Shown here one piece after another: positions 13,484-39,578 of a stretch of DNA of 64,000 nucleotides (the first letter of the stretch is position 1; every line of letters begins with the position of its first letter). The stretch lies in NCBI RefSeq assembly GCF_030814215.1, contig NZ_JAUSUT010000001.1, forward strand, positions 5,208,001-5,272,000. The letters run 5' to 3'. A model generated the notes under the pieces. That model saw only the letters and a list, made by a program, of their open reading frames with translations, did no database searches and was not told the DNA's origin. Both the position numbers and the translations under genes were made by a program. Origin of the DNA: Amycolatopsis thermophila (lineage in GTDB: Bacteria > Actinomycetota > Actinomycetes > Mycobacteriales > Pseudonocardiaceae).

Positions 13484-13499
13484 TGTACTGATCGGTCTG
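13484..13499. promoter_or_regulatory. TetR-type operator copy (ligase promoter, proximal)
   Basis: TGTACTGATCGGTCTG matches 12 of 16 bases of the recurrent palindrome TGTACCGATCGGTACA. It lies 33 bp upstream of the ligase start at 13451 and has a stronger copy 44 bp further upstream. Confidence 0.5.
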
Positions 13500-13527
13500 A
13501 AATAGGCCGTCGAATGCAGATTATGCT

Positions 13528-13543
13528 TGTACCGATCGGTATG
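13528..13543. promoter_or_regulatory. TetR-type operator copy (ligase promoter, distal)
   Basis: TGTACCGATCGGTATG matches 14 of 16 bases of the recurrent palindrome, with a perfect 12-bp core TACCGATCGGTA. It lies 77 bp upstream of the ligase and just after the enoyl-CoA hydratase stop codon, so the ligase seems to have its own promoter. Confidence 0.65.
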
Positions 13544-13560
13544 AACAAGGGGAATGGAGG

Positions 13561-14340
13561 TCACCGTCCGGTGAAGCGGGCCTTGCCGGGGCCGTGCTCG
13601 AGGAAGGACTCCATGCCGATCGTGCGGTCCTCGGTGGCGAACAGGGCCGCGAACACCTCCGACTCGAGATCCAGGCCCGCTTCGAGGTCGCGGTCGAGGC
13701 CGCCCTCGATCGCTTCCTTGGCCGCCGCGTAGGCGCGTGCCGGACCTTCGGCGAACTGGGCCGCGTAGGCGACGGCGCGGTCGAAGACCTCCCCGGCGGG
13801 CACGACCTCGTCGACGAGTCCCATCGCCAGCGCCTCGGCCGCGCCGACGAACCGGCCGGTGTAGACGAGGTCCTTCGCCGCGGCCTCGCCCACGAGGCGC
13901 GCGAGCCGTTGCGTGCCGCCACCGCCGGGGATCACGCCGAGCAGGATCTCCGGGACGCCGAGCCGGGCGTCGTCGGCCGCGATGCGGCGGTCGGTGGCGA
14001 GGGCGATCTCGAGTCCGCCGCCCAGGGCGAAGCCGGTGATCGCGCTGACCGTCGGCTTCCGGATGTGCGCCAGTGCGCCGATGCCCGCGGAGATCCGGCG
14101 GGACTCGCTGATCATATCCGCGTGGGAGGTGGACGCCAGTTCGCGCACGTCGGCGCCGGCGGCGAAAGTCTTCGGGCCACCGTGGACCACGACGGCGCGG
14201 ACGTCCTCGCGCGCCGTCACGATCGCGGCGACCTCGATCAGTTCCTCCCGCACCGCACGGTTGAGCGCGTTGACCGGCGGGCGGTCGAGGCGGACGACGC
14301 CGATCCTGTTCTCGACGGTCAGGTGGACGTGTTCCGGCAT
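13561..14340 (-). CDS. Enoyl-CoA hydratase/isomerase family protein
   Basis: A 259-residue crotonase. It contains the oxyanion-hole segments FAAGADVRELA and ITGFALGGGLEIALATD, and the acidic active-site region GVPEILLGVIPGGGGTQRLAR with the two glutamates typical of true hydratases. It would add water to a trans-2-enoyl-CoA in beta-oxidation. It precedes the acyl-CoA ligase on the same strand and has its own palindromic operator right upstream of the ATG. The divergent neighbour is the DsbA-like gene. Confidence 0.9.
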   Translation of the reverse strand: MPEHVHLTVENRIGVVRLDRPPVNALNRAVREELIEVAAIVTAREDVRAVVVHGGPKTFAAGADVRELASTSHADMISESRRISAGIGALAHIRKPTVSAITGFALGGGLEIALATDRRIAADDARLGVPEILLGVIPGGGGTQRLARLVGEAAAKDLVYTGRFVGAAEALAMGLVDEVVPAGEVFDRAVAYAAQFAEGPARAYAAAKEAIEGGLDRDLEAGLDLESEVFAALFATEDRTIGMESFLEHGPGKARFTGR

Positions 14341-14353
14341 GACGGCTCCTGTC

Positions 14354-14369
14354 TGTATCGATCGGTACA
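14354..14369. promoter_or_regulatory. TetR-type operator copy (enoyl-CoA hydratase)
   Basis: TGTATCGATCGGTACA matches 15 of 16 bases of the recurrent palindrome. It lies 13 bp upstream of the hydratase start, where a bound repressor would block transcription or initiation. Confidence 0.65.
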
Positions 14370-14433
14370 AGCGAGAGTACGGGGCGCGTCCTGTGGCCGT
14401 TTGTGAGCTTTTGCATAGGGTCGCGTGCTGAGT

Positions 14434-14449
14434 GGACCGGGTGGTCCAA
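14434..14449. promoter_or_regulatory. Inverted repeat upstream of DsbA-like gene
   Basis: TGGACC and GGTCCA flank a 4-bp spacer, 26 bp before the ATG at 14476. It is a candidate operator unrelated in core sequence to the neighbouring GATCGG palindrome. Confidence 0.4.
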
Positions 14450-14475
14450 TGACGCTCGGGAGTAGGCTGTGCGTC

Positions 14476-16094: not shown

Positions 16095-16967
16095 CTAGGC
16101 GGTGCCCGCTGCCGCGGGCTCGGCGGCCGCGCCGGCTTCCGTGGGCTGCGCCGCGGTGGTGTGCCCGGCCTCGGTGGGCGCCCCGGCCTCCCCGGCCCCC
16201 CTGGCCTCCCCGGTCGATCCGCCCGCCTCGGCCCGCCCAGCCGGCCCAGCCGGCCCAGCCGACTCGGCGCGCCCAGCCGACTCGGCCGGCCCAGCCGACT
16301 CGGCCGGCCCAGCCGACTCGGCCCGCCCAGCGGGCGCAGCGGGCACAGCGGGCACAGCCGATCCGCCCGGCGCGCCGGGCCGCAGCTGGCCGTGGATCAC
16401 CAGATCCGTGAGCCGGTCCGCGATGTCGTCGGGGGTGAGCGGTCCCCGTGCCGCGTCGAGCCAGACGTGGGTCCAGTTGAACATCCCCAGCACGCCCAGC
16501 ACGACCACCCGGTCGGCGCCGGCGAACACGCCCTGCTGTGCGCCCTCCCGGAGGACGTCGGCGAACAGGTTCTCGTACTCGTCCCGCAGCGCGGTCAGGC
16601 GCTTCGCGCGCTTGCCCGTCAGGGCGTGCATCTCGCGGATCACGACGGTCACCTCGTCGCACCGCGCGGCGATCGTGCGCAGGTGCTCGCGCGCCAGCGC
16701 CCGCAGCTTCTCCGCCGGCGGCAGATCGCGCGCCACCACCTCCCGGCCCCGCGCGAGCGCCTCCTCGACGTGCCGTTTCGACAGGTCGTACAGCAGGTCC
16801 TCTTTGGACCCGATGTGGTAGTACAGCGCACCGCGCTGCAACCCGGCCGCCTCACCCAGCTCGGCCACCCCGGTGGCGTGGTAGCCCTTCCGCGCGAAGA
16901 TCTCCGCCGCCACCCGCAGGATCCGCTCGTGGGTCGACTCGCCCGACGTGTCCCGGCGACGTGCCAT
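16095..16967 (-). CDS. TetR-family regulator with repetitive Ala/Gly/Pro tail
   Basis: A 290-residue TetR protein. Residues 10-55 form the helix-turn-helix (ARKGYHATGVAELGEAAG followed by LQRGALYYHIGSKEDLLY), with a normal ligand domain to about residue 195. The last 95 residues are low complexity, with repeated AESAGPA/AESAGRA units and a PTEAGHTTAAQPTEAG end. GGAGGG precedes the ATG. Its recognition helix is nearly the same as in the TetR at 24307, and both genes have copies of the same palindrome upstream. It is divergent from the ABC operon and probably represses it. Confidence 0.88.
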   Translation of the reverse strand: MARRRDTSGESTHERILRVAAEIFARKGYHATGVAELGEAAGLQRGALYYHIGSKEDLLYDLSKRHVEEALARGREVVARDLPPAEKLRALAREHLRTIAARCDEVTVVIREMHALTGKRAKRLTALRDEYENLFADVLREGAQQGVFAGADRVVVLGVLGMFNWTHVWLDAARGPLTPDDIADRLTDLVIHGQLRPGAPGGSAVPAVPAAPAGRAESAGPAESAGPAESAGRAESAGPAGPAGRAEAGGSTGEARGAGEAGAPTEAGHTTAAQPTEAGAAAEPAAAGTA

Positions 16968-16999: not shown

Positions 17000-17015
17000 C
17001 GTACCGATCGGTCCA
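17000..17015. promoter_or_regulatory. TetR-type operator copy (TetR autoregulation)
   Basis: CGTACCGATCGGTCCA matches the TGTACCGATCGGTACA palindrome at 14 of 16 positions. It lies 33 bp upstream of the TetR start at 16967. Confidence 0.6.
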
Positions 17016-17123: not shown

Positions 17124-17164
17124 TGTACCGTTCGGTCCGACGTCGGTACTGACCGATCGATACA
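17124..17164. promoter_or_regulatory. Two TetR-type operators in front of the ABC operon
   Basis: TGTACCGTTCGGTCCG (17124-17139) and CTGACCGATCGATACA (17149-17164) are two copies 25 bp apart, ending 24 bp before the permease ATG at 17188. Paired operators at the start of the largest operon suggest tight repression. The sites sit between the divergent TetR gene and its likely target. Confidence 0.65.
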
Positions 17165-17187: not shown

Positions 17188-18186
17188 ATGAGCGGAACCC
17201 TTCTGCGGCGGCGATCCACCGGGCGCGCGGGCATCTCCCAGGAACAGATCGTCGGGGTGGTGGTCGTCGCGCTGTTCGTGGTGTTCGGCCTGACCCTCGA
17301 CGGCTTCCTCCACTTGGACAACCTCGTCAACCTGGTGCGCAGCGTGTCCTCGCTGGGCATCTTCGGCGTCGCGATGGCCGTCGTGGTGATCGCCCGTGGC
17401 ATGGACCTGTCGCTGATCGCCTCGATGGGCGTGTCCACCGCGGTCGCGATCCAGCTGATGCGCAGCGAGGTGAGCACGCCCGTGGCCCTCGTCGCGGGCC
17501 TGGGCATCGTGCTCGTGATGGGACTGCTCAACGGGTTCCTGATCGCCTTCGCCGAGATCCCCGCGCTGTTCGCGACGCTGGCCTCCGGCCTGCTCGTCTA
17601 CGGCCTGGCCCGCACCACCGTCCTCGACGGACTGATCGCCGAACTGCCCGGCGACCGGCACTTCGTCCTCGCGCTCGGGCAGGGGACCCTGTTCGGCGTC
17701 CCGGTCCCCATCCTCGTGTTCGTGGTGACCGCGGTGCTCGCCCAGGTCATGCTGTCGCGCACGAAGGCGGGCCGGTTCATCTACGCGCACGGGGACAACG
17801 CGGGAGCCGCGGCGCTGTCCGGCATCGCCGTCCGCCCGCTCACCGTCTTCGAGTACATGGCGAGCGCGGCGATCGGGTTCGTCGGCGGGCTCGTGGTCGC
17901 CGGATCGGTGGGCGGGCTCAACACCCAGGTGATCGACAGCTCGCTGATCTACGACGTGCTGCTGGTCGTGGTCGTCGGCGGCATCAGCCTGGTCGGCGGC
18001 CGGGGCAGCGTGCTCAGCGTCGTCGTCGGCACCGCGCTGATCGGCGTGATGCTCAACGGCATGACGATCCTGAACATGAACACCCACGAGCAGGACATCG
18101 TCAAGGGTCTGATCCTGCTGGCGGCGCTCGTGCTGGACAACCGGCTGCACCCGCGCGACGAGGAGACCGTCCGCCAGGGCGACTGA
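17188..18186 (+). CDS. Sugar-type ABC importer permease (RbsC family)
   Basis: A 332-residue membrane protein with about nine to ten hydrophobic segments. The cytoplasmic loop near VVVIARGMDLSLIASMGVST and the conserved LLVVVVGGISLVGGRGSVLS are hallmarks of RbsC/XylH-like permeases. It starts a five-gene operon: permease, binding protein, permease-lactonase fusion, lactonase-like protein, ATPase. With only one ATPase gene, this permease and the fused one probably form a heterodimeric channel. Substrate class is carbohydrate-like by family, but the neighbouring CoA genes suggest something else. Confidence 0.9.
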   Translation: MSGTLLRRRSTGRAGISQEQIVGVVVVALFVVFGLTLDGFLHLDNLVNLVRSVSSLGIFGVAMAVVVIARGMDLSLIASMGVSTAVAIQLMRSEVSTPVALVAGLGIVLVMGLLNGFLIAFAEIPALFATLASGLLVYGLARTTVLDGLIAELPGDRHFVLALGQGTLFGVPVPILVFVVTAVLAQVMLSRTKAGRFIYAHGDNAGAAALSGIAVRPLTVFEYMASAAIGFVGGLVVAGSVGGLNTQVIDSSLIYDVLLVVVVGGISLVGGRGSVLSVVVGTALIGVMLNGMTILNMNTHEQDIVKGLILLAALVLDNRLHPRDEETVRQGD

Positions 18187-18232: not shown

Positions 18233-19309
18233 ATGCGTAACGCCAAGACGCGGGCGCTGCGGATCGGCGCGCTCGCCGCGGCCGCCGCGCTGGCCGCGAG
18301 TGCCTGCTCGACGGGCAGCAGCGCGAACACCACCGCCGCGGGCTCGAACCAGATCCCGCCCACCGCGTCCGCGGGCGAGCTGCGCGACCACGCGCTGAAC
18401 AGCCTGCAGGGCAAGACGGCCGCGTTCGTGCCGGTCGGCATGGGCACCCCGCTGATGGAGGAGTGGAACCGCCAGCTGGAGCGCGGCTTCGAGGCCGCCG
18501 GCATGCACTACGTGCTGCGCGATCCCAACTGGGACACCGCCAAGCAGGCCGAAGCGGTGCAGTCGCTGATCAACGAGAAACCGGCCGTGCTGGTGGTGCA
18601 CAACTTCGACGTCCAGATCCTGGCCAAGCTCATCCAGCAGGCGCAGCAGGCGGGGATCTACGTCATCCAGATCAACATGGTCTCCAACTACAAGTCCGAC
18701 GCGTTCGTCGGTGCCGACACCATCGACCTCGGCCGTCGCATCGCGACCGACATCGTTGGCCAGTGCGGGGCGAACACGCCCACCTCGCACGAAGTGCAGA
18801 TCGTCCAGGGCGACGCGACCTCCGGCTTCACCCTCGACGTCATGGCCGGCGCGAAGCAGATCTTCGACCAGCACCCGGAGATCAAGGTCGTGTCCACCCA
18901 GGCGGCGAACTGGGACCGCACCAAGGCCCACGACATCACCGCGACCGTGATCCAGCAGCACCCGAACCTGTGCGCCAGCTGGGGATTCTGGGACCAGATG
19001 CAGTACGGCGCGGCGACCGCGATCAAGGAGGCCGGCAAGCTCGGCCAGGTCAAGGTGTTCACCTCCGACCACAGCAACATCGCCTGCGAAGGCGTGCGCG
19101 ACGGGATGTTCTTCGAGTCCTACGGCTACTCCGTGCCCACGCAGGGCACCGACATCGTCGCCATCGCCAAGTACCTGATCCAGTCCGGTCAGGCGCCGGG
19201 CACCGCCCGCATCGCCGACTACACGCCGCTGGTCAAGATCGACAAGAGCAACTGGAACCAGCCCAACACGTGTTACGACGGCAAGAACGACGGTCTCACC
19301 GTCCGCTGA
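18233..19309 (+). CDS. ABC importer substrate-binding lipoprotein
   Basis: A 358-residue protein with a lipoprotein signal: a charged start (MRNAKTRALR), a hydrophobic stretch and a lipobox ending LAASAC, with lipidation expected near Cys25. The mature part is a periplasmic-binding-protein type I fold (sugar-binding family), with GKTAAFVPVGMGTPLMEEWN at the first strand and QIVQGDATSGFTLDVMAGAK in the middle. It would capture the solute outside the membrane for the two permeases. AAGGAGG precedes the ATG. Aromatic residues are frequent, but the ligand is not deducible. Confidence 0.9.
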   Translation: MRNAKTRALRIGALAAAAALAASACSTGSSANTTAAGSNQIPPTASAGELRDHALNSLQGKTAAFVPVGMGTPLMEEWNRQLERGFEAAGMHYVLRDPNWDTAKQAEAVQSLINEKPAVLVVHNFDVQILAKLIQQAQQAGIYVIQINMVSNYKSDAFVGADTIDLGRRIATDIVGQCGANTPTSHEVQIVQGDATSGFTLDVMAGAKQIFDQHPEIKVVSTQAANWDRTKAHDITATVIQQHPNLCASWGFWDQMQYGAATAIKEAGKLGQVKVFTSDHSNIACEGVRDGMFFESYGYSVPTQGTDIVAIAKYLIQSGQAPGTARIADYTPLVKIDKSNWNQPNTCYDGKNDGLTVR

Positions 19310-19337: not shown

Positions 19338-21539
19338 ATGACGGCCACTGCGGACGTGCGGCCCGCGCCCCCGCGGCGCCGCCCACCCGAACGCAACGTC
19401 GGCGAGCGCGAGACCGTGCGCGACCGGCTGCGGCACCTTCGCCACCGCGCCTCGCCGCAGCAGTTCTTCGCGGAACTGTTCGAGAAGCGGTGGATGGAGC
19501 CCGCCATCCCGCTGGCGATCCTGGTCGCGGTGATCGTGTTCTTCTCGATCGCCGCGCCCGGGTTCGCCGGCCCGGCCAACCTGCTGTCCACCGCGGCCGA
19601 GCTCGCGGAGATCTCACTGCTGTGCCTGGGCATGGCGGTCGTGATGATCTCCGGTGGCATCGACCTGTCCGTCGGCTCGATGTTCGGCCTGTGCAACATG
19701 ATCGCGATCCTGCTGATCACGGTGGCCGGGGTGCCGGTCGTGCCGGCGATCCTGCTGACGCTGGTCGCCGGGGCGGTGCTCGGCGCCACCAACGGCGTGA
19801 TCGTGGCCTACCTCAAGGCGCGGCCGTTCCTCACCACCCTGGTCACCCTGATCATCTTCCGCGGCGTGCTGAACCTGCTGGACCTGCACTACTCGGCGAA
19901 GACGGCGACCGCGTTCGTCGTCGACCCGGTGTGGGACTGGTTCGGCACGGGCAAGGTCGCCGGGCTGCCGTTCAGCTTCGTCACCCTGCTCGTGGTGCTG
20001 GTCGCCGGTCACGTCGTGCTGAGCCGGTCGCGCCTGGGCTGGCACATCACCGCGGTCGGCGCGAGCCGGCGGGCCGCCCGGCACGCGGGCATCCGGGTGG
20101 AACGCGTGCTGCTGATCAGCTACGTCTTCGCCGGTGCGCTGTGCGCCCTGGCGGGCGTCTTCTACGCGGCACGGCTGAGCAGCGCCAGCGCCCGCGTCGG
20201 CGAGGGGCTCGAGCTGAACGTGCTCACCGCGGTCATCCTCGGCGGCATCAGCCTCTCCGGCGGCAAGGGCACCGTCTGGCGGGCGTTCATCGGTGCGGCC
20301 ACCATCAGCCTGCTGGGCAAGGGGCTGCTGCTCATGGACGTGGGCGGCGAGGTCCTGCAGACCGTGCTCGCGGTCGTGCTGATCGTCGCGGTCGGCCTGG
20401 ACACCAAGTGGGGCAAGAACCGCGGCAAGGCCATTCAGAAGACCTACGTCAACCCCACCCTGCTGGAGTACGGTCCGCTGCCCGACGTGCGGCCCGGTTC
20501 GGGCAGCCCGTACGAGATCAACGACCGGCTGCGCGACGCCGAAGCCATCGGGCTCGGCGAGGTCGAGGGCCCCGAGGACGTGATCGTGGATTCCCGGGGC
20601 CGGGTCTACTGCGGCACCCGGCAGGGCTGGATCCTGCGCTTCTCCGGACCCGGCTTCAGCGAGCGGGAGGTCTTCGCGCGCATCGGCGGTCACCCGCTCG
20701 GGATGGCCTTCGACGCCGAGGAGAACCTCATCGTGTGCGTCGGCGGCATGGGCCTGTACGCGGTGTCGCCGGACGGCAAGCACCGCAAGCTGTCCGACGA
20801 GACCAACCGCACCTGGACCCGCCTGCGCGACGACTCGCGGCTGCGCATGGCCGACGACCTGGACATCACGCCCGACGGCAAGATCTGGTTCAGCGAGGCC
20901 ACCACCCGCTTCGACATGGCCGACTGGATCCTCGACGGCGTCGAGGGCCGCCCCAACGGGCGCCTGGTCTGCTACGACCCGGCCACCGGCAAGACCCGCA
21001 CGGTGATCCGCGACCTGGTGTTCCCCAACGGGATCTGCAGCTGCCACGACGGCGAGTCGCTGCTGATCGCGCAGACCTGGCTGTGCCGCATCCTGCGCTA
21101 CTGGCACAGCGGGCCGAACCGGGGCAGGCTCGAGATCTTCATGGACAACTTCCCCGGCTACCTGGACAACATCAACCGCGCCTCGGACGGCACGTACTGG
21201 GTGGCGATCAACGGGATGCGCTCACCCGCCTACGACCTCGCGATGCGCATGCCGACCTTCCGCCGCCGCATGATGAAACGCATCCCGCGCGACGAATGGC
21301 TCTACCCGAGCATGAACCACGGGTGCGTGGTGAAGGTGTCCGAGGACGGCGAGGTCCTGGAGACCTACTGGGATCCGGGCGGGGAGAAGCACTCCACGAT
21401 CACGTCGATGCGCGAGCACGACGGCTGGCTCTACATCGGCGGACTGGAGAACAACCGGATCGGGCGCATCCGGCTCCGCGCCGGGCAGCCCGACGCCGCC
21501 ACCACCGGACGGGCGGGCCGTCCCGCCACCGTCGGCTGA
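19338..21539 (+). CDS. ABC permease fused to SMP-30/strictosidine-synthase-like lactonase domain
   Basis: A 733-residue two-part protein in one uninterrupted frame. Residues about 50-375 form an RbsC-type permease (VVMISGGIDLSVGSMFGL; LGGISLSGGKGTVWRAF). After a short linker, residues about 385-715 form a six-bladed beta-propeller of the SMP-30/strictosidine-synthase/APMAP type, with GEVEGPEDVIVDSRG, GRLVCYDPATGKTRTVI, LVFPNGICSC and DNINRASDGTYWVAI. Candidate metal ligands Glu, Asn and Asp are retained. If it hydrolyses a lactone or ester, the import channel carries its own processing enzyme on the cytoplasmic side. Gene spacing is 28 bp upstream and 9 bp downstream. Confidence 0.9.
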   Translation: MTATADVRPAPPRRRPPERNVGERETVRDRLRHLRHRASPQQFFAELFEKRWMEPAIPLAILVAVIVFFSIAAPGFAGPANLLSTAAELAEISLLCLGMAVVMISGGIDLSVGSMFGLCNMIAILLITVAGVPVVPAILLTLVAGAVLGATNGVIVAYLKARPFLTTLVTLIIFRGVLNLLDLHYSAKTATAFVVDPVWDWFGTGKVAGLPFSFVTLLVVLVAGHVVLSRSRLGWHITAVGASRRAARHAGIRVERVLLISYVFAGALCALAGVFYAARLSSASARVGEGLELNVLTAVILGGISLSGGKGTVWRAFIGAATISLLGKGLLLMDVGGEVLQTVLAVVLIVAVGLDTKWGKNRGKAIQKTYVNPTLLEYGPLPDVRPGSGSPYEINDRLRDAEAIGLGEVEGPEDVIVDSRGRVYCGTRQGWILRFSGPGFSEREVFARIGGHPLGMAFDAEENLIVCVGGMGLYAVSPDGKHRKLSDETNRTWTRLRDDSRLRMADDLDITPDGKIWFSEATTRFDMADWILDGVEGRPNGRLVCYDPATGKTRTVIRDLVFPNGICSCHDGESLLIAQTWLCRILRYWHSGPNRGRLEIFMDNFPGYLDNINRASDGTYWVAINGMRSPAYDLAMRMPTFRRRMMKRIPRDEWLYPSMNHGCVVKVSEDGEVLETYWDPGGEKHSTITSMREHDGWLYIGGLENNRIGRIRLRAGQPDAATTGRAGRPATVG

Positions 21540-21548: not shown

Positions 21549-22661
21549 ATGCCCCGAGTCGAAGCGTGGGAACTGGTCAAGGAGTTCCTGTTCCCCGGCC
21601 GCACCGGCCACCGCGCCATCCCGCCGCTGGACGGCGGCCTCACCCCGAACGACGCGCTCGACGCCGTCGGCACCGCGATCGGCGGGCTGGCCGAACCGGA
21701 GGACGCCTGCCTGGACGAGCAGGGTGATCTGTACGTGAGCACCGGCCGGCGGGTCCTGCGGCTGTCCGGTCCGGACTTCACGAGGTCGGAGGTGGCCGCG
21801 ACCCTGTCCGGTCCGGCGGGCGCCCTCGCACCCGCGCCCGGCGGCGGCCTGCTGGTGTGCGTGGCGGGAACCGGCCTGGTGCGCGTGTGCCCGGACGGGA
21901 CCACGGAACTGGTGACTGGGGCCGACGAGACCGGCACCCCGATCCACTGCCCGACCGACCTGGCGGTCGCCGCGGACGGCACGATCTACCTCACCGACGG
22001 GTCCACGCGGCACCACGGCCGCGACTGGATCCGCGACCTGATGGAGCAGAACGCCCGCGGCCGGCTGCTGCGCCACGACCCGGCGACGGGACGCACGAGC
22101 GTGCTCGCCGGCGGCCTGGCCTACGCCAGCGGGGTGTGCCTGACGCCCGCGCGGGACGCGCTCGTGGTCTGCGAGGCCTGGGCGCACCGGGTCCGGCTCC
22201 ACCCGCTCACCGGCGGCGCTCCGCGGCCGTGGCGGGAGAACCTGCCCGGCTACCCGGGGCGGATCAACCCGGGTGGCGGCGGCTACTGGCTGGCGGTGTT
22301 CGCGCTGCGCACCCAGCTGGTCGAGTTCGTGCTGACCCAGCGCGACTACGTCGAGGAGATGATGCGCACCATCGAGCCGGACTACTGGATCCGGCCGGCG
22401 CTGCGCGGCCTGGACTCCGGCCTGGAACCGTTGCAGGGCGGGCAGATCCGCAAGCTGGGCGTGATCAAGCCGTGGGCGCCGCCGCGCTCGTACGGGCTGG
22501 TCGCCCGGCTGGACGAGGAGGGTTACGTGGTCTCGAGCATGCACAGTCGCGGCGGTGGCCGGCGGCACGGGGTCACCTCCGCCCGGCAGTGCGGCGGCCG
22601 GCTGTTCGTCGCGGTGCACGGGGGCGACCAGGTGCTGGTGACCGACGCGGGGGAGGCGTGA
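21549..22661 (+). CDS. Stand-alone SMP-30/lactonase-like beta-propeller, active site altered
   Basis: A 370-residue relative of the fused propeller (LAEPEDACLDEQGDLYVSTG; ARGRLLRHDPATGRTSVLAG). Where the fused protein has FPNG it has YASG, and where that one has DNINRASDG it has GRINPGGGG. Two of the likely metal-binding residues are therefore missing, while the first glutamate stays. It may be a regulatory or structural partner, or use another site. It overlaps the ATPase gene by one base (TGATG), so the two are translationally coupled. No signal peptide is visible. Confidence 0.8.
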   Translation: MPRVEAWELVKEFLFPGRTGHRAIPPLDGGLTPNDALDAVGTAIGGLAEPEDACLDEQGDLYVSTGRRVLRLSGPDFTRSEVAATLSGPAGALAPAPGGGLLVCVAGTGLVRVCPDGTTELVTGADETGTPIHCPTDLAVAADGTIYLTDGSTRHHGRDWIRDLMEQNARGRLLRHDPATGRTSVLAGGLAYASGVCLTPARDALVVCEAWAHRVRLHPLTGGAPRPWRENLPGYPGRINPGGGGYWLAVFALRTQLVEFVLTQRDYVEEMMRTIEPDYWIRPALRGLDSGLEPLQGGQIRKLGVIKPWAPPRSYGLVARLDEEGYVVSSMHSRGGGRRHGVTSARQCGGRLFVAVHGGDQVLVTDAGEA

Positions 22662-24205
22662 TGAGCACGTCACTGGTGGACCAGCTGGACATCGACCCGG
22701 CCGCCGGGCGCACCCTGCTGGTCGAGATGTCGAAGGTGACCAAGACCTACCGCGGCGTGCACGCCATCCACGACGTCGACTTCGACCTGCGCGCCGGTGA
22801 GGTGCACGCGCTGGTGGGGGAGAACGGCGCGGGCAAGTCCACGCTGTGCAAGATCCTCGCCGGCGCGGTGCAGCACTCCAGCGGCGAGCTGCGGATCGCC
22901 GGCGAACCGGTGACCTTCCGCCGCCCGCACGACGCGCTCGACGCCGGCATCGCGATGGTGTACCAGGAGACGAGCCTGGTGCCGACGATGACGGCCGCGC
23001 AGAACATCGAGCTGGGCCACGAGAAGCCGCTGACGCGGTTCCGGTCGCTGAACATCGGGGCGCAGCAGCTGCTGCAGTCGATGAACTTCCACGTCGACCC
23101 GACGGCGTACGTGTCCACGCTGGGCGCGGCGAAGAAGCAGATGGTGGAGATCGCGCGGGCGCTGCGCTCCCGCGCCCGCATCGTCATCTTCGACGAGCCG
23201 ACGGCGAGCCTCACGCCCGAGGAGACCCTGCACCTGTTCAACGTCATCGAGGACCTGCGCAACGCGGGCCTGGGCATCATCTACGTCTCGCACGCGCTGG
23301 AGGAGTCGCTCAAGATCGCCGACCGCGTCACCGTCCTGCGCGACGGGGAACGGGTGGCGTGCCTGGACGCGAAGAAGACCGACCGGGACGAGATCGTCCG
23401 GCACATGGTGGGCCGCAGCCTCGCCGGGGTCGGCCGGGTGGAGTCCCGGCGGACCACGGACGTGCGGCGGCGGCGCGTGCTGGAGGTGGAGAACCTCATC
23501 CTGGGCAACGTCGTGAAGAACATGTCGTTCACCGCCTACGCCGGAGAGGTCCTCGGCATCGCCGGGCTCATCGGCAGCGGCCGCACCGAGACCGCGAAGA
23601 TCATCGCGGGCGCGCTCAAACGCAACCGCATCCACGGCGGGCGGGTCCTGCTCAACGGCAAACCGGTGCGCTACCGGGTGCCCAAGCAGGCGATCGACGA
23701 CGGGATCGTCTACATCACCGAGGACCGCAAACTCGACGGCTTCTTCGAGACGATGACCATCGCCGAGAACCTCTACCTCGGCCTCCTCGCCTCCCGCAAG
23801 GGCCGCCGCCAGTGGTGGCTGTCCGCGGCGCGGCGGAAGCGCCTGGCGAAGGAGTGGGGCGACCGCCTGCGGATCAAGGCGATCAACGCCGACGCCAAGA
23901 TCGTCGAGCTCTCCGGCGGCAACCAGCAGAAGGTGGTGGTCGGCAAGTCGCTGGTGGCCGACCCCGAGGTGGTCATCTTCGACGAGCCGACCCGCGGCGT
24001 CGACGTCGGCGCGATCGAGGAGATCCACCAGCTGGTGCGGCAGCTGGCCGACGAGGGCAAGGCCGTCATCGTCATCTCCTCCTACCTGCCGGAGATCCTC
24101 GCGGTGTCCGACCGGATCCTGGTCACCCGGTTCGGCCGGACCGTCGCGGAGTTCAGCCGCGAGGAGGCCACCCAGGAGAAGATCATGTACGCCGCCATCT
24201 TCTGA
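22661..24205 (+). CDS. Sugar-type ABC importer ATPase (RbsA/XylG family, two domains)
   Basis: A 514-residue double ATPase. The first nucleotide-binding domain has GENGAGKS (Walker A), MVYQETSLVP (Q-loop), and IVIFDEPTASL (Walker B). The second has the usual degenerate GLIGSGRTE, then VELSGGNQQK (signature) and VVIFDEPTRGVDVG. This is the standard layout of class 2 carbohydrate importers, which need one such protein for both permease subunits. It is the last gene of the operon begun at 17188. It powers uptake through the permease and permease-lactonase pair. Confidence 0.93.
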   Translation: MSTSLVDQLDIDPAAGRTLLVEMSKVTKTYRGVHAIHDVDFDLRAGEVHALVGENGAGKSTLCKILAGAVQHSSGELRIAGEPVTFRRPHDALDAGIAMVYQETSLVPTMTAAQNIELGHEKPLTRFRSLNIGAQQLLQSMNFHVDPTAYVSTLGAAKKQMVEIARALRSRARIVIFDEPTASLTPEETLHLFNVIEDLRNAGLGIIYVSHALEESLKIADRVTVLRDGERVACLDAKKTDRDEIVRHMVGRSLAGVGRVESRRTTDVRRRRVLEVENLILGNVVKNMSFTAYAGEVLGIAGLIGSGRTETAKIIAGALKRNRIHGGRVLLNGKPVRYRVPKQAIDDGIVYITEDRKLDGFFETMTIAENLYLGLLASRKGRRQWWLSAARRKRLAKEWGDRLRIKAINADAKIVELSGGNQQKVVVGKSLVADPEVVIFDEPTRGVDVGAIEEIHQLVRQLADEGKAVIVISSYLPEILAVSDRILVTRFGRTVAEFSREEATQEKIMYAAIF

Positions 24206-24262: not shown

Positions 24263-24278
24263 CGGATCGTTCGGTACA
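24263..24278. promoter_or_regulatory. TetR-type operator copy (second TetR)
   Basis: CGGATCGTTCGGTACA matches 12 of 16 bases of the recurrent palindrome, with a good right half. It lies 28 bp upstream of the TetR start at 24307, so autoregulation is likely. Confidence 0.45.
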
Positions 24279-24306: not shown

Positions 24307-24885
24307 ATGACGGTCACGAGTTTCGAGGCGAACCGGGCGCGGGTGATCGGGATCGCGGCGGAGCTGTTCGCCCGCAACGGCTACCACGGCACCGGCATCG
24401 CCGAGCTCGGCCAGGCCGCCGGGCTCGGGCGGGGCGCGCTCTACCACTACATCGGCAGCAAGGAGGCCGTGCTCTACGCCATCAGCAAGGACCAGGTCGA
24501 CAAGATGAACAGCTACGCCGAGCAGCTGCTCGACGAGGGTCGCGAACCGCTGGACCTGCTGCGGCAGATGGCCCGCGGGCTGCTGCGCAACATCGCCGAC
24601 CACCGGTCCGAATGGGCGGTCTTCTTCCGCGAGTACACCGCGCTCACCGGTGAGCGCCGCGACCACGTCATCGCCGCCCGTGAGCGGTACGAGAGCTACT
24701 GGCGCCAGGCGCTGGACAACGGTGTGCGCGCCGGAGTGCTCAAGCAGACCCCCCGCCTGCTCGTGAAGGGCATCCTCGGCATGCTCAACTACACCTACCT
24801 GTGGTTCGAGCCCGACGGTGAGCTGACCCCCGACGAGGTGGCCGACATGTTCCTCGACGCGCTGATCGAGGGCATCCGGGCTTGA
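24307..24885 (+). CDS. TetR-family regulator, paralogue of the one at 16095
   Basis: A 192-residue repressor. The helix-turn-helix (ARNGYHGTGIAELGQAAG followed by LGRGALYHYIGSKEAVLY) is almost the same as in the TetR at 16095, and the ligand domains align along their length (EYTALTGERRDHVIAARERY against EMHALTGKRAKRLTALRDEY; ILGMLNYTYLWFEPDGELTP against VLGMFNWTHVWLDAARGPLT). It lacks the repetitive tail. The pair probably recognise the same operators but may respond to different inducers, for example the imported compound and a CoA intermediate. It separates the ABC operon from the SDR/thiolase block. Confidence 0.9.
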   Translation: MTVTSFEANRARVIGIAAELFARNGYHGTGIAELGQAAGLGRGALYHYIGSKEAVLYAISKDQVDKMNSYAEQLLDEGREPLDLLRQMARGLLRNIADHRSEWAVFFREYTALTGERRDHVIAARERYESYWRQALDNGVRAGVLKQTPRLLVKGILGMLNYTYLWFEPDGELTPDEVADMFLDALIEGIRA

Positions 24886-24917: not shown

Positions 24918-24933
24918 TGGACCGATCGGTACG
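24918..24933. promoter_or_regulatory. TetR-type operator copy (SDR 25059)
   Basis: TGGACCGATCGGTACG matches 14 of 16 bases of the recurrent palindrome, 126 bp upstream of the SDR start at 25059 and 33 bp after the TetR stop. The distance suggests an untranslated leader. Confidence 0.6.
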
Positions 24934-25058
24934 GAAATTCTTGTGCCGCCGTCATCCGCCCTGTTACAACGGGGCGGACCGGTGGCGCCCGCCCGTCGTT
25001 CTCCCGAACCTTTCCGCGGATGCCCGCCGCCGGCGATGCCCACGTGGGAGGAAAAGAC

Positions 25059-25817
25059 ATGCGAATCGACGAGTGCGCGGCCGTGGTCACCGGCGGCGCG
25101 TCCGGCCTCGGCCGGGCCACGGCGCTGCGGCTGGCGGAAAAGGGGGCGCGGGTGTTCGCGCTCGACCTGCCCGCCGCGGTGGCCGGAGCCGCCCCCGCCG
25201 ACGGGGTGACCTGCCTCGAGGCGGACGTCACCGACGCCGACCAGGTGCGGGCGGCGGTGGCGCGGGCCGCGGACGGCGGCGCGCCGCTGCGGATCGTGGT
25301 GAACTGCGCGGGCATCGCCCCGTCGGCCCGGATCCTGTCCCGCGCGGGCGTGCACGAGCCGGCCGTCTTCCGCAAGGTGCTCGACATCAACCTGACCGGC
25401 ACCTTCACGGTGATGACGCTCGCCGCGGAGGCGATCGCCGCGACCGAGCCGCTGGCCGACGGTGCGCGCGGGGTGGTGGTCAACACCGCCTCGGCCGCCG
25501 CGTTCGACGGCCAGATCGGGCAGGCGGCCTACGCCGCGTCCAAGGGTGGCGTCGCCGCGCTGACGTTGCCGGCGGCGCGTGACCTCGCCTCGTCCGGCAT
25601 CCGCGTGATGACCATCGCGCCGGGCATCATCGACACGCCGATGATGGCCACCGTCGCCGAGGAGTACCGGGCCGGGCTCGCCGCCGGTGTCCCGTTCCCG
25701 CGGCGCTTCGGGCGTCCCGAGGAGTACGCCGAGCTGGTCGCCGGCATCGTCGAGCACGACTACCTCAACGGCGAGGTCATCCGGATGGACGGCGCGATCC
25801 GGATGGCACCGCGCTAG
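25059..25817 (+). CDS. Short-chain dehydrogenase, 3-hydroxyacyl-CoA dehydrogenase type II-like
   Basis: A 252-residue SDR with VVTGGASGLGRATALRLAEKG for cofactor binding, NCAG, the catalytic Ser region NTASAAAFDGQIGQ and YAASKGG. The long inserted section before the active site and the end NGEVIRMDGAIRMAPR resemble HSD17B10-like 3-hydroxyacyl-CoA dehydrogenases, which oxidise 3-hydroxyacyl-CoA with NAD. Such a step fits between the crotonase and thiolase of this region. GGAGGAAAAGAC precedes the ATG. It has its own operator copy upstream. Confidence 0.88.
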   Translation: MRIDECAAVVTGGASGLGRATALRLAEKGARVFALDLPAAVAGAAPADGVTCLEADVTDADQVRAAVARAADGGAPLRIVVNCAGIAPSARILSRAGVHEPAVFRKVLDINLTGTFTVMTLAAEAIAATEPLADGARGVVVNTASAAAFDGQIGQAAYAASKGGVAALTLPAARDLASSGIRVMTIAPGIIDTPMMATVAEEYRAGLAAGVPFPRRFGRPEEYAELVAGIVEHDYLNGEVIRMDGAIRMAPR

Positions 25818-25864: not shown

Positions 25865-25880
25865 TGTACCGACCGGTCCA
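25865..25880. promoter_or_regulatory. TetR-type operator copy (SDR-thiolase operon)
   Basis: TGTACCGACCGGTCCA matches 14 of 16 bases of the recurrent palindrome, 50 bp upstream of the GTG start at 25931. Confidence 0.6.
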
Positions 25881-25930
25881 TACAGGTATTGTTCGGGAAG
25901 AGAGTCCAGCGTCGGACACCGGGAGGAAAC

Positions 25931-27957: not shown

Positions 27958-27973
27958 CAGACCGATCGGTACA
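27958..27973. promoter_or_regulatory. TetR-type operator copy (SDR-acyl-CoA dehydrogenase operon)
   Basis: CAGACCGATCGGTACA matches 13 of 16 bases of the recurrent palindrome and ends 8 bp before the ATG at 27982, where a bound repressor would overlap the ribosome-binding region. Confidence 0.6.
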
Positions 27974-27981: not shown

Positions 27982-28728
27982 ATGGACGCAGACGACACCA
28001 CGACGGGCGACCGGGTCGCCCTGGTCACCGGCGCCTCCCGGGGCATCGGCGCCGGCATCGCGCGACAGCTTCTCGACCGGGGAGTGCGCGTCGCCGGCAC
28101 CTACCGGTCCGGCGGCGAGCTCGTCGAGAAGCTCGGGGCCGCCCATCCCGGCCGGGTCCTCCCGGTCGCCTTCGACCTCGCCGTGCCGCAGACCGCGGCG
28201 GACGTGGTCGAGCAGGTCACCGCGCACTGGGGCCGGCTCGACTCGCTCGTGCTCAACGCCGCGGTGTGGCAGGGCGGCAAGCTCGCCCGGATCGACCTCG
28301 GCGACTGGTGGCGGGTGATCGAGGAGAACCTGCGCAGCACCGCGGCGCTCGTGCGCGCCGCGATCCCGTGGCTGATCCGCGGCGAAAACCCCGGCGTGGT
28401 GCTCATCGGGTCCGCGGTCGGGTCGGTGGGTTTCCCCGGGGACACCGCCTACGCGAGCGTCAAGTCGGCGGCGGTGGGCTTCGCCCGGTCGCTGGCCAAG
28501 GAGCTCGCACCGCAGGGTGTGCGGGTCAACGTGCTCGCGCCCGGCTTCGTCGACACCGACATGACCGCCGCCATCCCGGACGGCTCGCGGCAGAAGATCG
28601 CCGACGCCACCCTGCTCGGCCGGTTCGGCACGGTCGACGAAATCGCCCGCGCCGCGGTGTTCCTGGCCGAGGACGCCACGTTCTGCACGGGCGCGGTACT
28701 CGCCGCCGACGGCGGCTGGACGCTGTGA
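27982..28728 (+). CDS. FabG-like short-chain dehydrogenase
   Basis: A 248-residue SDR with ALVTGASRGIGAGIARQLLD, LNAAVW, IGSAVGSVGFPGDTAYASVKSAA.. (catalytic Ser, Tyr and Lys; split here only to name it) and APGFVDTDMTAAIP, ending GAVLAADGGWTL as in FabG-type 3-oxoacyl reductases. It probably interconverts a 3-oxo and 3-hydroxy acyl group. It sits 17 bp before the acyl-CoA dehydrogenase and shares its transcript. The operator copy directly upstream puts both genes in the TetR regulon. Confidence 0.87.
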   Translation: MDADDTTTGDRVALVTGASRGIGAGIARQLLDRGVRVAGTYRSGGELVEKLGAAHPGRVLPVAFDLAVPQTAADVVEQVTAHWGRLDSLVLNAAVWQGGKLARIDLGDWWRVIEENLRSTAALVRAAIPWLIRGENPGVVLIGSAVGSVGFPGDTAYASVKSAAVGFARSLAKELAPQGVRVNVLAPGFVDTDMTAAIPDGSRQKIADATLLGRFGTVDEIARAAVFLAEDATFCTGAVLAADGGWTL

Positions 28729-28745
28729 ATTTCAAGGAGGACACC

Positions 28746-29909
28746 ATGAACGCTGGCCTGCCCGCCGACGAGTACCAGAAGCTGCGCGACAGCGTCTTCG
28801 CGACCATCTGGGACGAGCTCGACCCGCTCGAGCACCGGATCGAAGACACCGAGAAGATCCCCTACGACATCGTCCTGCCCGCGCTGCGGGCGTGCGGCGC
28901 CTTCGGCCTGATCGTGCCCCAGGAGTACGGCGGCGCCGGCCTGTCGATCGCGCAGTACCTGCCGATCCTCGCCGAGTTCGCCAAGATCCAGGGCGGCATC
29001 CGCGCCATCGTGCACGTGCACAACTCCTTCGCCCACGCGCTGTCCGAAATCGGCAACGCGGAGCAGAAGAAGGAGATCCTGCCCGGCGCGGCGACCGGGG
29101 AGAAGTCGGTGGCCTTCGCCCTCACCGAGCCGGGCAACGGCACCGGCGCCGACCTGTCGACCACGGCGCGCCGCGAGGGTGACGAGTACGTGCTCAACGG
29201 CCGGAAGTGGCTCATCACCAACTCCGACATCGCCTCGCACTTCCTCGTGTTCGCCAAGACGTCGGCGAAGGAGGTCTCGGCGATCATCGTGCCGCGGGAC
29301 ACGCCCGGGTTCACCATCGCGCCGCTGCCCGAGACGATGGGCTGCAAGGGTGCCGAGCACGGCGAACTGACGTTCACCGACGTGCGGGTGCCGGCGTCGA
29401 ACCTGGTGGGCTCCGAAGGTGAGGGTGGCGCGCACCTGGAGCGGGCGCTGGAGATCAGCCGCGTGTTCATCGCCGCGTCGTCGCTCGGCACGGCGTCGCG
29501 TGCGCTGGAGCTGTCGCTGAAGTACTCGCAGGAGCGGGTCACGTTCGGCAAGCCGATCGCCGAGCGCCAGGCGATCCAGCGGTACCTGGCCGAGATGGCG
29601 GCCGACGTGTACGCGTTGCGCGGCATGCTGGCCGACTGTGCCGCCAAGTGGGACGCGGGCAAGCGCATCCCGGCCGAGTCGTCGCTGGTGAAGCAGTTCG
29701 GGCTGGAGGCCGTCGGCCGCGTCACCGACCGCGCGCTGCTGGTGCACGGCGGCATCGGCTACACGCGCAAGTACCCGATCGAACGGCTCTACCGGGACGC
29801 CCGGCTGAACTGGCTGGAGGAGGGCACGCCGACCATCCAGTACATGGTGGCCGCGCGGCAGCTGATCGACGGCTACACCTTCGACGACGCGTTCACCGTG
29901 GCCGGCTGA
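28746..29909 (+). CDS. Acyl-CoA dehydrogenase
   Basis: A 387-residue flavoprotein. It shows the FAD-site motif VAFALTEPGNGTGADLSTTA, WLITNSDIASHF, RVTFGKPIAERQAIQ and the C-terminal GGIGYTRKYPIERLYRDAR. The catalytic base is expected at the glutamate of LEEGTPTIQ. It introduces the 2,3-double bond of an acyl-CoA and passes electrons to ETF. The ATG follows AAGGAGG. A strong terminator lies 13 bp after the stop, which marks the end of the catabolic block. Confidence 0.93.
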   Translation: MNAGLPADEYQKLRDSVFATIWDELDPLEHRIEDTEKIPYDIVLPALRACGAFGLIVPQEYGGAGLSIAQYLPILAEFAKIQGGIRAIVHVHNSFAHALSEIGNAEQKKEILPGAATGEKSVAFALTEPGNGTGADLSTTARREGDEYVLNGRKWLITNSDIASHFLVFAKTSAKEVSAIIVPRDTPGFTIAPLPETMGCKGAEHGELTFTDVRVPASNLVGSEGEGGAHLERALEISRVFIAASSLGTASRALELSLKYSQERVTFGKPIAERQAIQRYLAEMAADVYALRGMLADCAAKWDAGKRIPAESSLVKQFGLEAVGRVTDRALLVHGGIGYTRKYPIERLYRDARLNWLEEGTPTIQYMVAARQLIDGYTFDDAFTVAG

Positions 29910-35145: not shown

Positions 35146-35184
35146 GCGCGGGTGTCCGCGGGGGCCGGGCCGGTGGCCGAAAAC

Positions 35185-35193
35185 GGATAGTGC
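35185..35193. promoter_or_regulatory. Single ACTATCC-type half-site (inverted)
   Basis: GGATAGTGC is the inverse complement of GCACTATCC, the same element found in pairs at 5777 and 34188. It lies 68 bp upstream of the acyl-CoA ligase start. Confidence 0.4.
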
Positions 35194-35227
35194 ACCGGCG
35201 CCACGTTCACCAGAGTGGACCGCGGGT

Positions 35228-35243
35228 CGTACCGGGCGGTCCA
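35228..35243. promoter_or_regulatory. Weak TetR-type operator copy (ligase 35261)
   Basis: CGTACCGGGCGGTCCA matches 12 of 16 bases of the TGTACCGATCGGTACA palindrome with a changed centre. It lies 17 bp upstream of the GTG, the right place for a repressor. Confidence 0.35.
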
Positions 35244-35260
35244 CCGGAGTACGGAGGTTC

Positions 35261-36838: not shown

Positions 36839-36869
36839 TCCACCGATCCCTGCAACCGAGGAGACGACC

Positions 36870-38066: not shown

Positions 38067-38070
38067 CCAA

Positions 38071-38086
38071 TGGACCGATCGATCCA
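38071..38086. promoter_or_regulatory. TetR-type operator copy between convergent genes
   Basis: TGGACCGATCGATCCA is a near-perfect palindrome of the same type, 4 bp after the dehydrogenase stop and 47 bp before the convergent transporter's stop. No start codon is near, so its role is unclear. Confidence 0.5.
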
Positions 38087-38132
38087 TTGCGATACGGGGC
38101 GGCTCCGGGTATCCGGTGCCGCCCCGAATCGG

Positions 38133-39410
38133 TCACGCCCGGCGGGGCGCCAGCAGCAGTGCGACGAAGGTGACCACGCACGCCACGACGATGTACAGGG
38201 CGATGACCCACGAGCCGCCGAACCCGGCGAAGAGAGCTGCCGCGATGAACGGTGCCGGGCCGCTGGTGATCAGGCCGCCGACCTGGTAGGCGACCGAAAC
38301 GCCGGTGTAGCGGTGCTCGGCGCCGAACAGCTCGGCCAGGAACCCGGCCATCGCGCTGTAGGTCAGCGCGTGCCCGAGGGTGGCGAACAGGAACATGGCC
38401 ACCAGTACCGCGAGCGGCGCGCCGGTGTCGATCAGGTGGAAGAACGGGAACGCGGCGAGGGCGGAGTAGAGCGCGCCGATCAGGAGGACCTTCCGGTTGC
38501 CGATCCGGTCGGCGAGCACCGCCACCAGCGGCACCGCGGCGATGTCCACCAGGGACGCGACGATCAGGCAGGTCAGCACGGTGCCGCGGGAGACGCCGGC
38601 CGCGCCCGGCGCGTAGGACAGCACGAACACGCTGACGACGTAGAACGGGATGTTGGACGCGGCCTGCGCGAACAGGCCGACGAGCACGGCGCGCAGCGAG
38701 CGGCGCAGGGTGTCCTTGAGCGGGAACTTCGAGACCTCCCGGGCCTCGGTGACTTCCTGGAACTCCGGCGATTCCTCCAGGCGGGAGCGCACGTAGAGGC
38801 CGACCACGATCAGCACGGCGCTGGCCAGGAACGGCAGGCGCCACCCCCAGGAGAGCAGCTGGTCCTTCGGCAGTTGCTGCACCGCGAGGAACGCCGAGGC
38901 GGACAGCACGAGCCCGGCCGGGACGCCGGCCTGCGGCCAGCTGCCGTAGAAGGCCCGGCGGTGCGGCGGGGCGTGTTCGACGGCCATCAGCACGGCGCCG
39001 CCCCATTCGCCGCCGACCGCGAAACCCTGCAGCAGCCGGACGAGCACGAGCAGGATCGGTGCGGCGGCGCCGATCCGGGCGTAGTCCGGCAGCAGTCCGA
39101 TCGCGACCGTGCCGCCGCCCATCAGGAGCAGGGACAGGATCAGCATCCGCTTGCGGCCCAGCCGGTCGCCGAAGTGGCCGAACACGATGCCGCCCAGCGG
39201 CCGCGCGACGAAGGCGACGCCGAAGGTCGCGAACGCGGCGAGGGTGCCGGCGAGCGGGCTGAGGGTGGGGAAGAAGCGGGTGTTGAACACCAGCGTCGCC
39301 GCCGAGCCGAAGAGGAAGAAGTCGTACCACTCGATCGCGGTGCCGAGGAAACTCGCGAAGGCCACGCGCGCGGGTCTCACCCGCACGGCCTGTTGCTGGT
39401 CGACCACCAT
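38133..39410 (-). CDS. MHS-family (MFS) metabolite:H+ symporter
   Basis: A 425-residue twelve-helix transporter. FASFLGTAIEWYDFFLFGSA is the classic MHS N-terminal motif, and GHFGDRLGRKRMLILSLLLM is the loop 2-3 MFS signature, with a second copy at ADRIGNRKVLL. Relatives import shikimate, proline, alpha-ketoglutarate or aromatic acids with protons. The ATG at 39410 is chosen because GGAGG lies five bases upstream. It converges with the dehydrogenase and has a regulon operator about 150 bp upstream. Confidence 0.92.
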   Translation of the reverse strand: MVVDQQQAVRVRPARVAFASFLGTAIEWYDFFLFGSAATLVFNTRFFPTLSPLAGTLAAFATFGVAFVARPLGGIVFGHFGDRLGRKRMLILSLLLMGGGTVAIGLLPDYARIGAAAPILLVLVRLLQGFAVGGEWGGAVLMAVEHAPPHRRAFYGSWPQAGVPAGLVLSASAFLAVQQLPKDQLLSWGWRLPFLASAVLIVVGLYVRSRLEESPEFQEVTEAREVSKFPLKDTLRRSLRAVLVGLFAQAASNIPFYVVSVFVLSYAPGAAGVSRGTVLTCLIVASLVDIAAVPLVAVLADRIGNRKVLLIGALYSALAAFPFFHLIDTGAPLAVLVAMFLFATLGHALTYSAMAGFLAELFGAEHRYTGVSVAYQVGGLITSGPAPFIAAALFAGFGGSWVIALYIVVACVVTFVALLLAPRRA

Positions 39411-39562
39411 CACTACCTCCAACGACATCGGGGAGAGTTCCGCCGCGACGCGGCGTGGGGCTGGACGCCGCCGGCCCCGTGCGCGAACCGGAGCCGGCGG
39501 ACGACGCCGCGTCCTCGATCGGGCGACCGTGGTCCGCGACGTTGCGTGGACTATAGGTCGTA

Positions 39563-39578
39563 TTGACCGATCGGTACA
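39563..39578. promoter_or_regulatory. TetR-type operator copy (MHS transporter)
   Basis: TTGACCGATCGGTACA matches 14 of 16 bases of the recurrent palindrome, about 153 bp upstream of the transporter start. The rest of 39411-39762 (352 bp) shows no gene. Confidence 0.6.

What the first reader, a model, noticed from the sequence alone, without database searches (positions are those of the whole stretch)
13484..39578. A 16-bp palindrome marks a scattered TetR regulon
About thirteen sites close to TGTACCGATCGGTACA lie upstream of the ligase and hydratase (13.5-14.4 kb), both TetR genes, the ABC operon (two sites), three SDR/thiolase/ACAD units, a second ligase, and the MHS transporter. Several match 14-15 of 16 bases. 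This ties transport and beta-oxidation genes into one control unit over 26 kb.
Basis: seen in the sequence. Interest (0 to 1): 0.75.

Follow-up and report, generated by a model that had tools for sequence, protein, structure and literature searches.

The report
PfmR-type operators in a catabolic cluster
In an Amycolatopsis-type bacterium, a short DNA palindrome repeated in front of most operons of one gene cluster is probably the docking site of two related repressor proteins that switch uptake and breakdown of one unknown compound on and off together; the switch is of a known type.

Summary
The window has 14 matches to TGTACCGATCGGTACA with up to 4 mismatches (shuffles 1.4); 13 are intergenic at 13.5-39.6 kb. 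All 6 genome matches with up to 2 mismatches are here. Eleven of the 13 have a counterpart at the same promoter in two Amycolatopsis relatives, and these sites are better conserved (91-93%) than flanking DNA (69-70%). The other two (35228, 38071) lie in DNA absent from those relatives.

A natural control ties the sites to TetR1. Twelve copies of the transporter operon were found in 297 genomes: all 7 near TetR1 carry the palindrome over the promoter -10 box; the 5 others lack it and carry a different palindrome there.

Both TetRs have Thermus PfmR (3VPR) as nearest solved structure; its tightest tested probe, CTGACCGATCGGTCAG, shares the 10-base core.

Best explanation: a local regulon of nine promoters repressed by TetR1, probably also TetR2, and relieved by a pathway intermediate, probably an acyl-CoA: a new member of a known kind. 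Binding, effector and substrate are untested; a permease fused to a lactonase-like propeller hints at a lactone or sugar-acid-like substrate.

The parts
13484..13499 (.). operator, one of a pair 44 bp apart, upstream of ligA
   Evidence: counterpart with the same 44-bp spacing in A. deserti, A. tucumanensis and A. sp. 2-2
13528..13543 (.). operator, second of the ligA pair
14354..14369 (.). operator just upstream of ech (15 of 16 match)
   Evidence: 16/16 identical in A. deserti and in A. tucumanensis; no counterpart seen in A. sp. 2-2
17000..17015 (.). operator upstream of tetR1
17124..17139 (.). operator upstream of perm1, overlaps -10 box TACCGT of TTGACG-N16-TACCGT
   Evidence: operator and promoter in 7 of 7 TetR1-linked copies, 0 of 5 others
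17149..17164 (.). second operator upstream of perm1, 25 bp from the first
   Evidence: the A. tucumanensis counterpart has 5 mismatches
24263..24278 (.). operator upstream of tetR2 (4 mismatches, conserved)
24918..24933 (.). operator upstream of sdr1
25865..25880 (.). operator upstream of sdr2-thiolase
27958..27973 (.). operator immediately upstream of sdr3-acad
39563..39578 (.). operator upstream of the MHS transporter
35228..35243 (.). doubtful site upstream of ligB (4 mismatches, in a block not found in relatives)
38071..38086 (.). doubtful site between converging gene ends, inside an imperfect 22-bp inverted repeat (read by eye)
   Evidence: no counterpart in the MHS-tetR3 gap of two relatives
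11802..13451 (-). ligA, acyl-CoA ligase
13561..14340 (-). ech, enoyl-CoA hydratase
16095..16967 (-). tetR1, TetR_C_24 regulator with a low-complexity C-terminal tail
   Evidence: model of residues 1-197
17188..18186 (+). perm1, CUT2-type permease
18233..19309 (+). sugar-type solute-binding protein
19338..21539 (+). permease fused to a strictosidine-synthase/SMP-30-like beta-propeller
21549..22661 (+). second SSL/NHL-type propeller protein
22661..24205 (+). CUT2-type ABC ATPase
24307..24885 (+). tetR2, TetR_C_24 regulator
25020..25817 (+). sdr1
25889..26752 (+). sdr2
26749..27930 (+). thiolase
27982..28728 (+). sdr3
28725..29909 (+). acyl-CoA dehydrogenase
38133..39428 (-). MHS-family symporter

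Best explanation
The palindrome, core ACCGnnCGGT in a 16-bp dyad, is the operator of PfmR-type TetR repressors encoded in the cluster. TetR1 is the constant partner; TetR2, a relative seen in four Amycolatopsis genomes, probably reads the same sites. Bound dimers cover or abut the promoters of about nine units: ligA, ech, tetR1, the ABC operon, tetR2, sdr1, sdr2-thiolase, sdr3-acad and MHS. Both tetR genes are thereby autoregulated. An intermediate of the pathway, most likely an acyl-CoA thioester, binds the C-terminal domain and releases the repressor, so import and beta-oxidation rise together. Shown by sequence: the sites, their conservation, their association with TetR1, and the overlap with a conserved promoter-like -10 box at perm1. 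Inferred: binding, repression, effector, and the share of TetR2.
For: Enrichment. Site bases 161/176 (A. deserti) and 164/176 (A. tucumanensis) identical versus flanks 653/933 and 644/933. Of the 13 sites, 11 have a counterpart with up to 4 mismatches at the same promoter in A. deserti, and 10 in A. tucumanensis, where the eleventh has 5 mismatches. Among 297 family genomes searched, TetR1 was found in 7 and perm1 in 9 genomes, 12 copies. The 7 copies near TetR1 all carry the operator plus TTGACK-N16-TACCGT; the 5 others, three of them second copies in genomes that have TetR1 elsewhere, carry neither. Nearest solved structure of both TetRs by sequence is 3VPR, PfmR; the TetR1 model matches it best (34% identity, TM 0.87). 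The tightest PfmR probe of Table 1 of PMC7022988 is CTGACCGATCGGTCAG, KD 2 nM. A TetR with 49-50% identity to TetR2 beside an ACAD/thiolase operon in two other genomes has TGTACTGATCAGTACA upstream.
Against: No binding or expression data. Of 8 distinct TetR1 rows (11 rows with repeats), 5 have a site with up to 4 mismatches within 300 bp upstream and 3 do not (L067, L074, L095). Two TetRs with the same RGALY recognition helix (L022, L024) have no such site upstream. The node uniting TetR1 with TetR2 is weakly supported (85/88). Conservation in A. sp. 2-2 was measured at one promoter only and was not significant (29/32 vs 61/77, p 0.18); its ech site has no counterpart. Outside the locus, CTAACCGATCGGTCAG at C1:5150549, 55 bp before a FAD-monooxygenase gene, is poor against the window consensus (6 mismatches) but one base from the PfmR probe, so a member elsewhere is not excluded.
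Confidence: 0.85

Rival explanations
1. Only TetR1 binds all sites; TetR2 is a passenger or regulates something else with its own, differing site.
For: TetR1 loci in which no TetR2 orthologue was found (L067, L070, L071, L074) keep an operator before perm1. The tetR2 upstream site is among the weakest of the conserved set (4 mismatches).
Against: 4 of 4 TetR2 rows keep a matching palindrome upstream (repeats not counted). TetR2-like genes in G005 and G013, where no TetR1 passed the threshold, carry the same kind of palindrome.
Confidence: 0.3
2. The palindromes are sites of a regulator encoded elsewhere (for instance the TetR_C_24-type homologues at C1:5296925, 4976118 or 3009403), not of TetR1/TetR2.
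For: Such homologues exist in the genome, and some TetR homologues in other same-genus genomes have a similar upstream palindrome, TGTACCAGTCGGTCTA (whether these are orthologous to the three named was not tested).
Against: Operators follow nearness to TetR1, not genome identity: G000, G002 and G010 each hold a second transporter copy without operator.
Confidence: 0.07
3. The palindromes are chance or structural repeats (terminator stems, mobile repeats).
For: Other palindromes also scored high in the unbiased count. Site 38071 sits where a terminator could be.
Against: 6 of 6 strong matches in about 0.4% of the genome, conservation above flanks, position over a conserved promoter-like sequence.
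Confidence: 0.03

Closest known systems
PfmR / TTHB023 of Thermus thermophilus (PDB 3VPR)
   Same: Nearest solved structure of both TetRs. 16-bp dyad with core ACCGATCGGT. Site before its own gene and before fatty-acid/CoA-ester genes.
   Different: 34% identity to TetR1; different target genes, with a CUT2 transporter and an MHS symporter; two TetR genes in one locus.
PaaR of Burkholderia cenocepacia (BCAL0210)
   Same: TetR repressor of a CoA-ester catabolic pathway with operator ACCGACCGGTCGGTT at several promoters.
   Different: Phenylacetate pathway; no paa oxygenase family appeared among the hits shown for the cluster proteins (some lists capped at 25). Its protein was not aligned here.
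QsdR of Rhodococcus erythropolis
   Same: TetR regulator beside a lactonase and an acyl-CoA ligase.
   Different: Its structure 4ZA6 is not among the 60 best PDB matches shown for either TetR; the passages read print no operator sequence; the MBL lactonase of the window lies in a block with only a weak site.
AibR, KstR2, Bacillus FadR (TetR family)
   Same: Among the next structural neighbours of TetR1; AibR and FadR solved with CoA thioesters by title; KstR2's effector is recalled.
   Different: Lower similarity; their operators were not compared here.

Membership tests
TetR family, TetR_C_24 subgroup | TetR_N helix-turn-helix plus TetR_C_24 domain | tested here: met
   both proteins above the curated cut-offs for both domains
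PfmR-like regulator | closest solved relative is PfmR by sequence and by fold | tested here: met
   both TetRs, sequence; TetR1 model only; TetR2 not modelled
PfmR-like regulator | operator with core ACCGnnCGGT in a 16-bp dyad | tested here: met
   (sequence match; no binding test)
PfmR-like regulator | site upstream of own gene (autoregulation) | tested here: met
   17000 before tetR1, 24263 before tetR2; among relatives and window 5 of 8 TetR1 rows and 4 of 4 TetR2 rows
PfmR-like regulator | high-affinity binding and repression relieved by a metabolite | not testable with these tools
   needs protein and expression work
PaaR phenylacetate regulon | controls paa ring-epoxidation genes | tested here: not met
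   no paa oxygenase among the hits shown; the hydratase reaches 200 bits against PaaF's cut-off of 371
QsdR/qsd operon | lactonase QsdA (phosphotriesterase type, recalled) and ligase QsdC next to the regulator | tested here: not met
   the lactonase candidate is metallo-beta-lactamase type, and is not beside tetR1 or tetR2

The most novel reading that the evidence does not exclude
Two related repressors with different effectors read one shared operator set, so the cluster opens fully only when both the imported substrate (or its first CoA ester) and a later beta-oxidation intermediate are present: a two-input gate on a transporter whose permease carries its own lactonase-like propeller and so couples import to ring opening. 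Operator and regulator change together between paralogous copies of the same transporter operon.
Probability: 0.25. Interest if true: 0.6.

Novelty: new member of a known kind. Interest (0 to 1): 0.38.

Why it matters
It gives a testable operator and regulator for a catabolic cluster found in few of the family genomes searched (TetR1 in 7 of 297) and not recognised in the paper listings. The paralogous transporter copies with different palindromes at nearly the same promoter position are a clean natural case of operator exchange. The operator could be used to find the inducer, and through it the substrate of a permease-propeller fusion.

Tried and rejected
Genome-wide regulon. Outside the locus there are 7 exact 10-base cores and 7 three-mismatch matches (one place is in both lists). 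None matches 14 of 16 or better. Neighbours scanned with Pfam were a sugar-isomerase-like barrel, a FAD monooxygenase and a sortase, a TetR/SDR pair with its own palindromes, a galactokinase-like gene, an ABC ATPase, and two proteins without hits. By my gene caller L077, L080, L088, L012 and L014 lie inside called ORFs and L079 overlaps the start of one; the neighbours of L077, L080, L087, L012 and L014 were not scanned, and C1:6985804 was not fetched. C1:5150549 (L081) is the best outside candidate for a PfmR-type site and stays open.

Lactone regulon of the QsdR type: attractive because of the AhlS-like lactonase at 34.3 kb, but at E 1e-80 that gene was found in 1 of 297 family genomes, the window's own, and lucif, MBL, ligB and FeADH gave no match between MHS and tetR3 in both syntenic relatives. 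The lactone idea therefore rests on the propeller domain only. ligB as a moved copy of the ligase that A. deserti has between atp and tetR2: not supported, 37% identity. Separating TetR1 sites from TetR2 sites by eye: the site lists overlap too much.

Literature: searches (ACCGATCGGT, 7 papers; six variants, 86 papers, 40 listed; 3 papers; 9 papers) listed none that I recognised from title and start of abstract as describing this regulon or the fusion; some searches were used for known relatives. Passages only were read of PMC6262395, PMC7022988, PMC2770484, PMC9493321, PMC10636190 and PMC6657595; no paper was read whole.

Limits: gene starts come from a GC-frame caller and are uncertain, e.g. 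sdr1 25020 or 25059, sdr2 25889 or 25931. The Fisher values treat bases as independent. L072 starts inside the binding-protein gene and was not counted as a control. 63266 (4 mismatches, outside the cluster) was dropped from the 13. Tree rows L019-L021, L054, L055, L057, L059, L061, L092-L094 (repeats) and L072 were left out.

Full report
What was checked. The consensus TGTACCGATCGGTACA occurs 9 times in the window with up to 3 mismatches (0.12 expected) and 14 times with up to 4 (1.38 expected). Over the whole 7.3-Mb genome all 6 matches with up to 2 mismatches and 9 of 16 with up to 3 are in this 26-kb stretch; the reversed control pattern gave 2. The exact 10-base core ACCGATCGGT occurs 12 times, 5 of them here, control 1. 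The outside matches that were examined lie in called ORFs or beside genes with no evident link to the cluster; some neighbours were not scanned, and one outside match is open: CTAACCGATCGGTCAG at C1:5150549, 55 bp before a FAD-monooxygenase gene.

Anatomy. In order: ligA (-) and ech (-) with sites before each; tetR1 (-); perm1, binding protein, permease-propeller fusion, propeller protein and ATPase of a CUT2-type ABC transporter; tetR2; sdr1; sdr2-thiolase; sdr3-acyl-CoA dehydrogenase; then SnoaL-like, chloride-channel-like and TetR3 genes; a block of flavin reductase, luciferase-like monooxygenase, metallo-beta-lactamase-fold lactonase, ligB and iron alcohol dehydrogenase; and an MHS symporter. 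Conserved sites stand before ligA (two), ech, tetR1, perm1 (two), tetR2, sdr1, sdr2, sdr3 and MHS.

Conservation. Two same-genus genomes, G010 (A. deserti by contig identity) and G002 (A. tucumanensis, cluster split over two contigs), hold the cluster without the 32.5-38.1 kb block and with an extra ligase between atp and tetR2. A. deserti has a palindrome with up to 4 mismatches at the corresponding place for 11 of the 13 sites; A. tucumanensis for 10, the eleventh (second perm1 site) having 5 mismatches. Site bases are 91% and 93% identical, flanks 70% and 69%. In A. sp. 2-2 the ech site has no counterpart and sdr1 and sdr2 gave no match, but sites remain before ligA (two), tetR1, perm1 (two), tetR2, thiolase, sdr3 and MHS. 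The two sites inside the missing block are unsupported; the lactonase of that block was found in 1 of 297 family genomes.

A natural control. The transporter operon comes in two paralogous forms. In 297 family genomes perm1 was found in 9 genomes, 12 copies, and TetR1 in 7 genomes. In 7 copies TetR1 lies within 4 kb; all 7 carry an operator with up to 4 mismatches and a TTGACK-N16-TACCGT promoter-like sequence whose -10 box lies inside it. The other 5 copies are 86-87% identical to the window's perm1, closer to it than the operator-bearing copies of other genera (76-82%), yet have no operator (best 6 or 7 mismatches) and no such promoter; they have TCTAGTGCTCGCTAGA or a variant with 1-2 changes at about the same place. 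Three of these 5 sit in genomes that also hold a TetR1-linked copy. Two further named TetR1 loci outside that sample, A. jejuensis (L067) and A. sp. 2-2 (L068), have the paired sites. No copy of the second palindrome was found near the TetR gene of L069 or L073, so its reader is unknown.

The regulators. Both TetRs have TetR_N and TetR_C_24 domains. Their best sequence match among solved structures is 3VPR, which passages of two papers (PMC10636190, PMC6657595) and the fold-search title identify as PfmR of Thermus thermophilus. The TetR1 model (pLDDT 90) matches it best, TM 0.87. Passages of PMC7022988 give its in-vitro consensus and the tightest probe CTGACCGATCGGTCAG with KD 2 nM. The same paper reports that a second Thermus TetR, TTHA0167, binds some of the same sites, a precedent for two TetRs on one operator. 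PaaR of Burkholderia uses ACCGACCGGTCGGTT at several promoters (passages of PMC2770484 and PMC9493321). A tree of 39 homologues groups the 8 TetR1 rows (100/99) and the 4 TetR2 rows (99/99); their union with the G005/G013 proteins and others is weaker (85/88). Two proteins in that wider group (L022, L024) share the RGALY helix but have no site within 300 bp upstream.

How it probably works. Repressor dimers occupy the dyads; at perm1 this would hide the -10 box. Structural neighbours respond to CoA thioesters (AibR with isovaleryl-CoA and Bacillus FadR with stearoyl-CoA by title; others recalled), and ligase and beta-oxidation genes are targets, so an acyl-CoA intermediate is the likely inducer. 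Paired sites, 24-26 bp apart at perm1 in the window, A. deserti, A. jejuensis, A. sp. 2-2 and L070 (other copies show one strong site) and 44 bp apart at ligA, may hold two dimers per promoter. These steps are inference.

Substrate. The transporter is of the sugar class. Its second permease is fused to a propeller whose model (pLDDT 74) resembles strictosidine synthase first and, further down, lactonases and DFPase. The other enzymes are of beta-oxidation type. A lactone or sugar-acid-like compound that is opened and then CoA-activated would fit, but this is a guess.

Verdict. It is a new member of a known kind of control.

Noticed in passing
window 19338-21539: CUT2-type permease fused to a strictosidine-synthase/SMP-30-like propeller; homologues with 81-95% identity in 10 loci of Pseudonocardiaceae. 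Possible coupling of import to lactone opening.
   Followed up: partly
window 32501-38066: Block of flavin reductase, luciferase-like monooxygenase, AhlS-like lactonase, ligase and iron alcohol dehydrogenase not found at this place in two syntenic relatives; the lactonase was found in no other of 297 family genomes at E 1e-80. Looks like an insertion in this lineage.
   Followed up: partly
L107 (G000:C1:48797), L099, L100, L105, L106: Paralogous transporter operon with a different palindrome, TCTAGTGCTCGCTAGA or a close variant, at about the same promoter position; its regulator is unknown.
   Followed up: partly
L081:1498-1513 (G000:C1:5150549): CTAACCGATCGGTCAG, one base from the PfmR probe, 55 bp upstream of a FAD-monooxygenase gene about 57 kb before the window: possible outside site.
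   Followed up: partly
window 14433-14448: Another palindrome, TGGACCGGGTGGTCCA, just before the Rv2466c-like gene; TGGACCGGGCGGTCCA is before the same gene in A. sp. 2-2 (L068:5037). Possibly another regulator's site.
   Followed up: no
window 15406-16360: GC-rich tandem repeats (units 9, 18, 44 and 238 bp) downstream of and running into the 3' end of tetR1, giving it a long Ala/Gly/Pro-rich tail; the A. deserti TetR1 frame ends about 20 residues after residue 197.
   Followed up: partly
L010/L011 (G000:C1:1505275 and 1505308): Two related half-matching palindromes 33 bp apart between a different TetR gene and an SDR gene, a likely separate small regulon.
   Followed up: no
L027, L028, L030, L031, L033: TetR homologues in five same-genus genomes share TGTACCAGTCGGTCTA (L027: TGTACCAATCGGTCTA) 177-187 bp upstream, perhaps a sister operator.
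   Followed up: no
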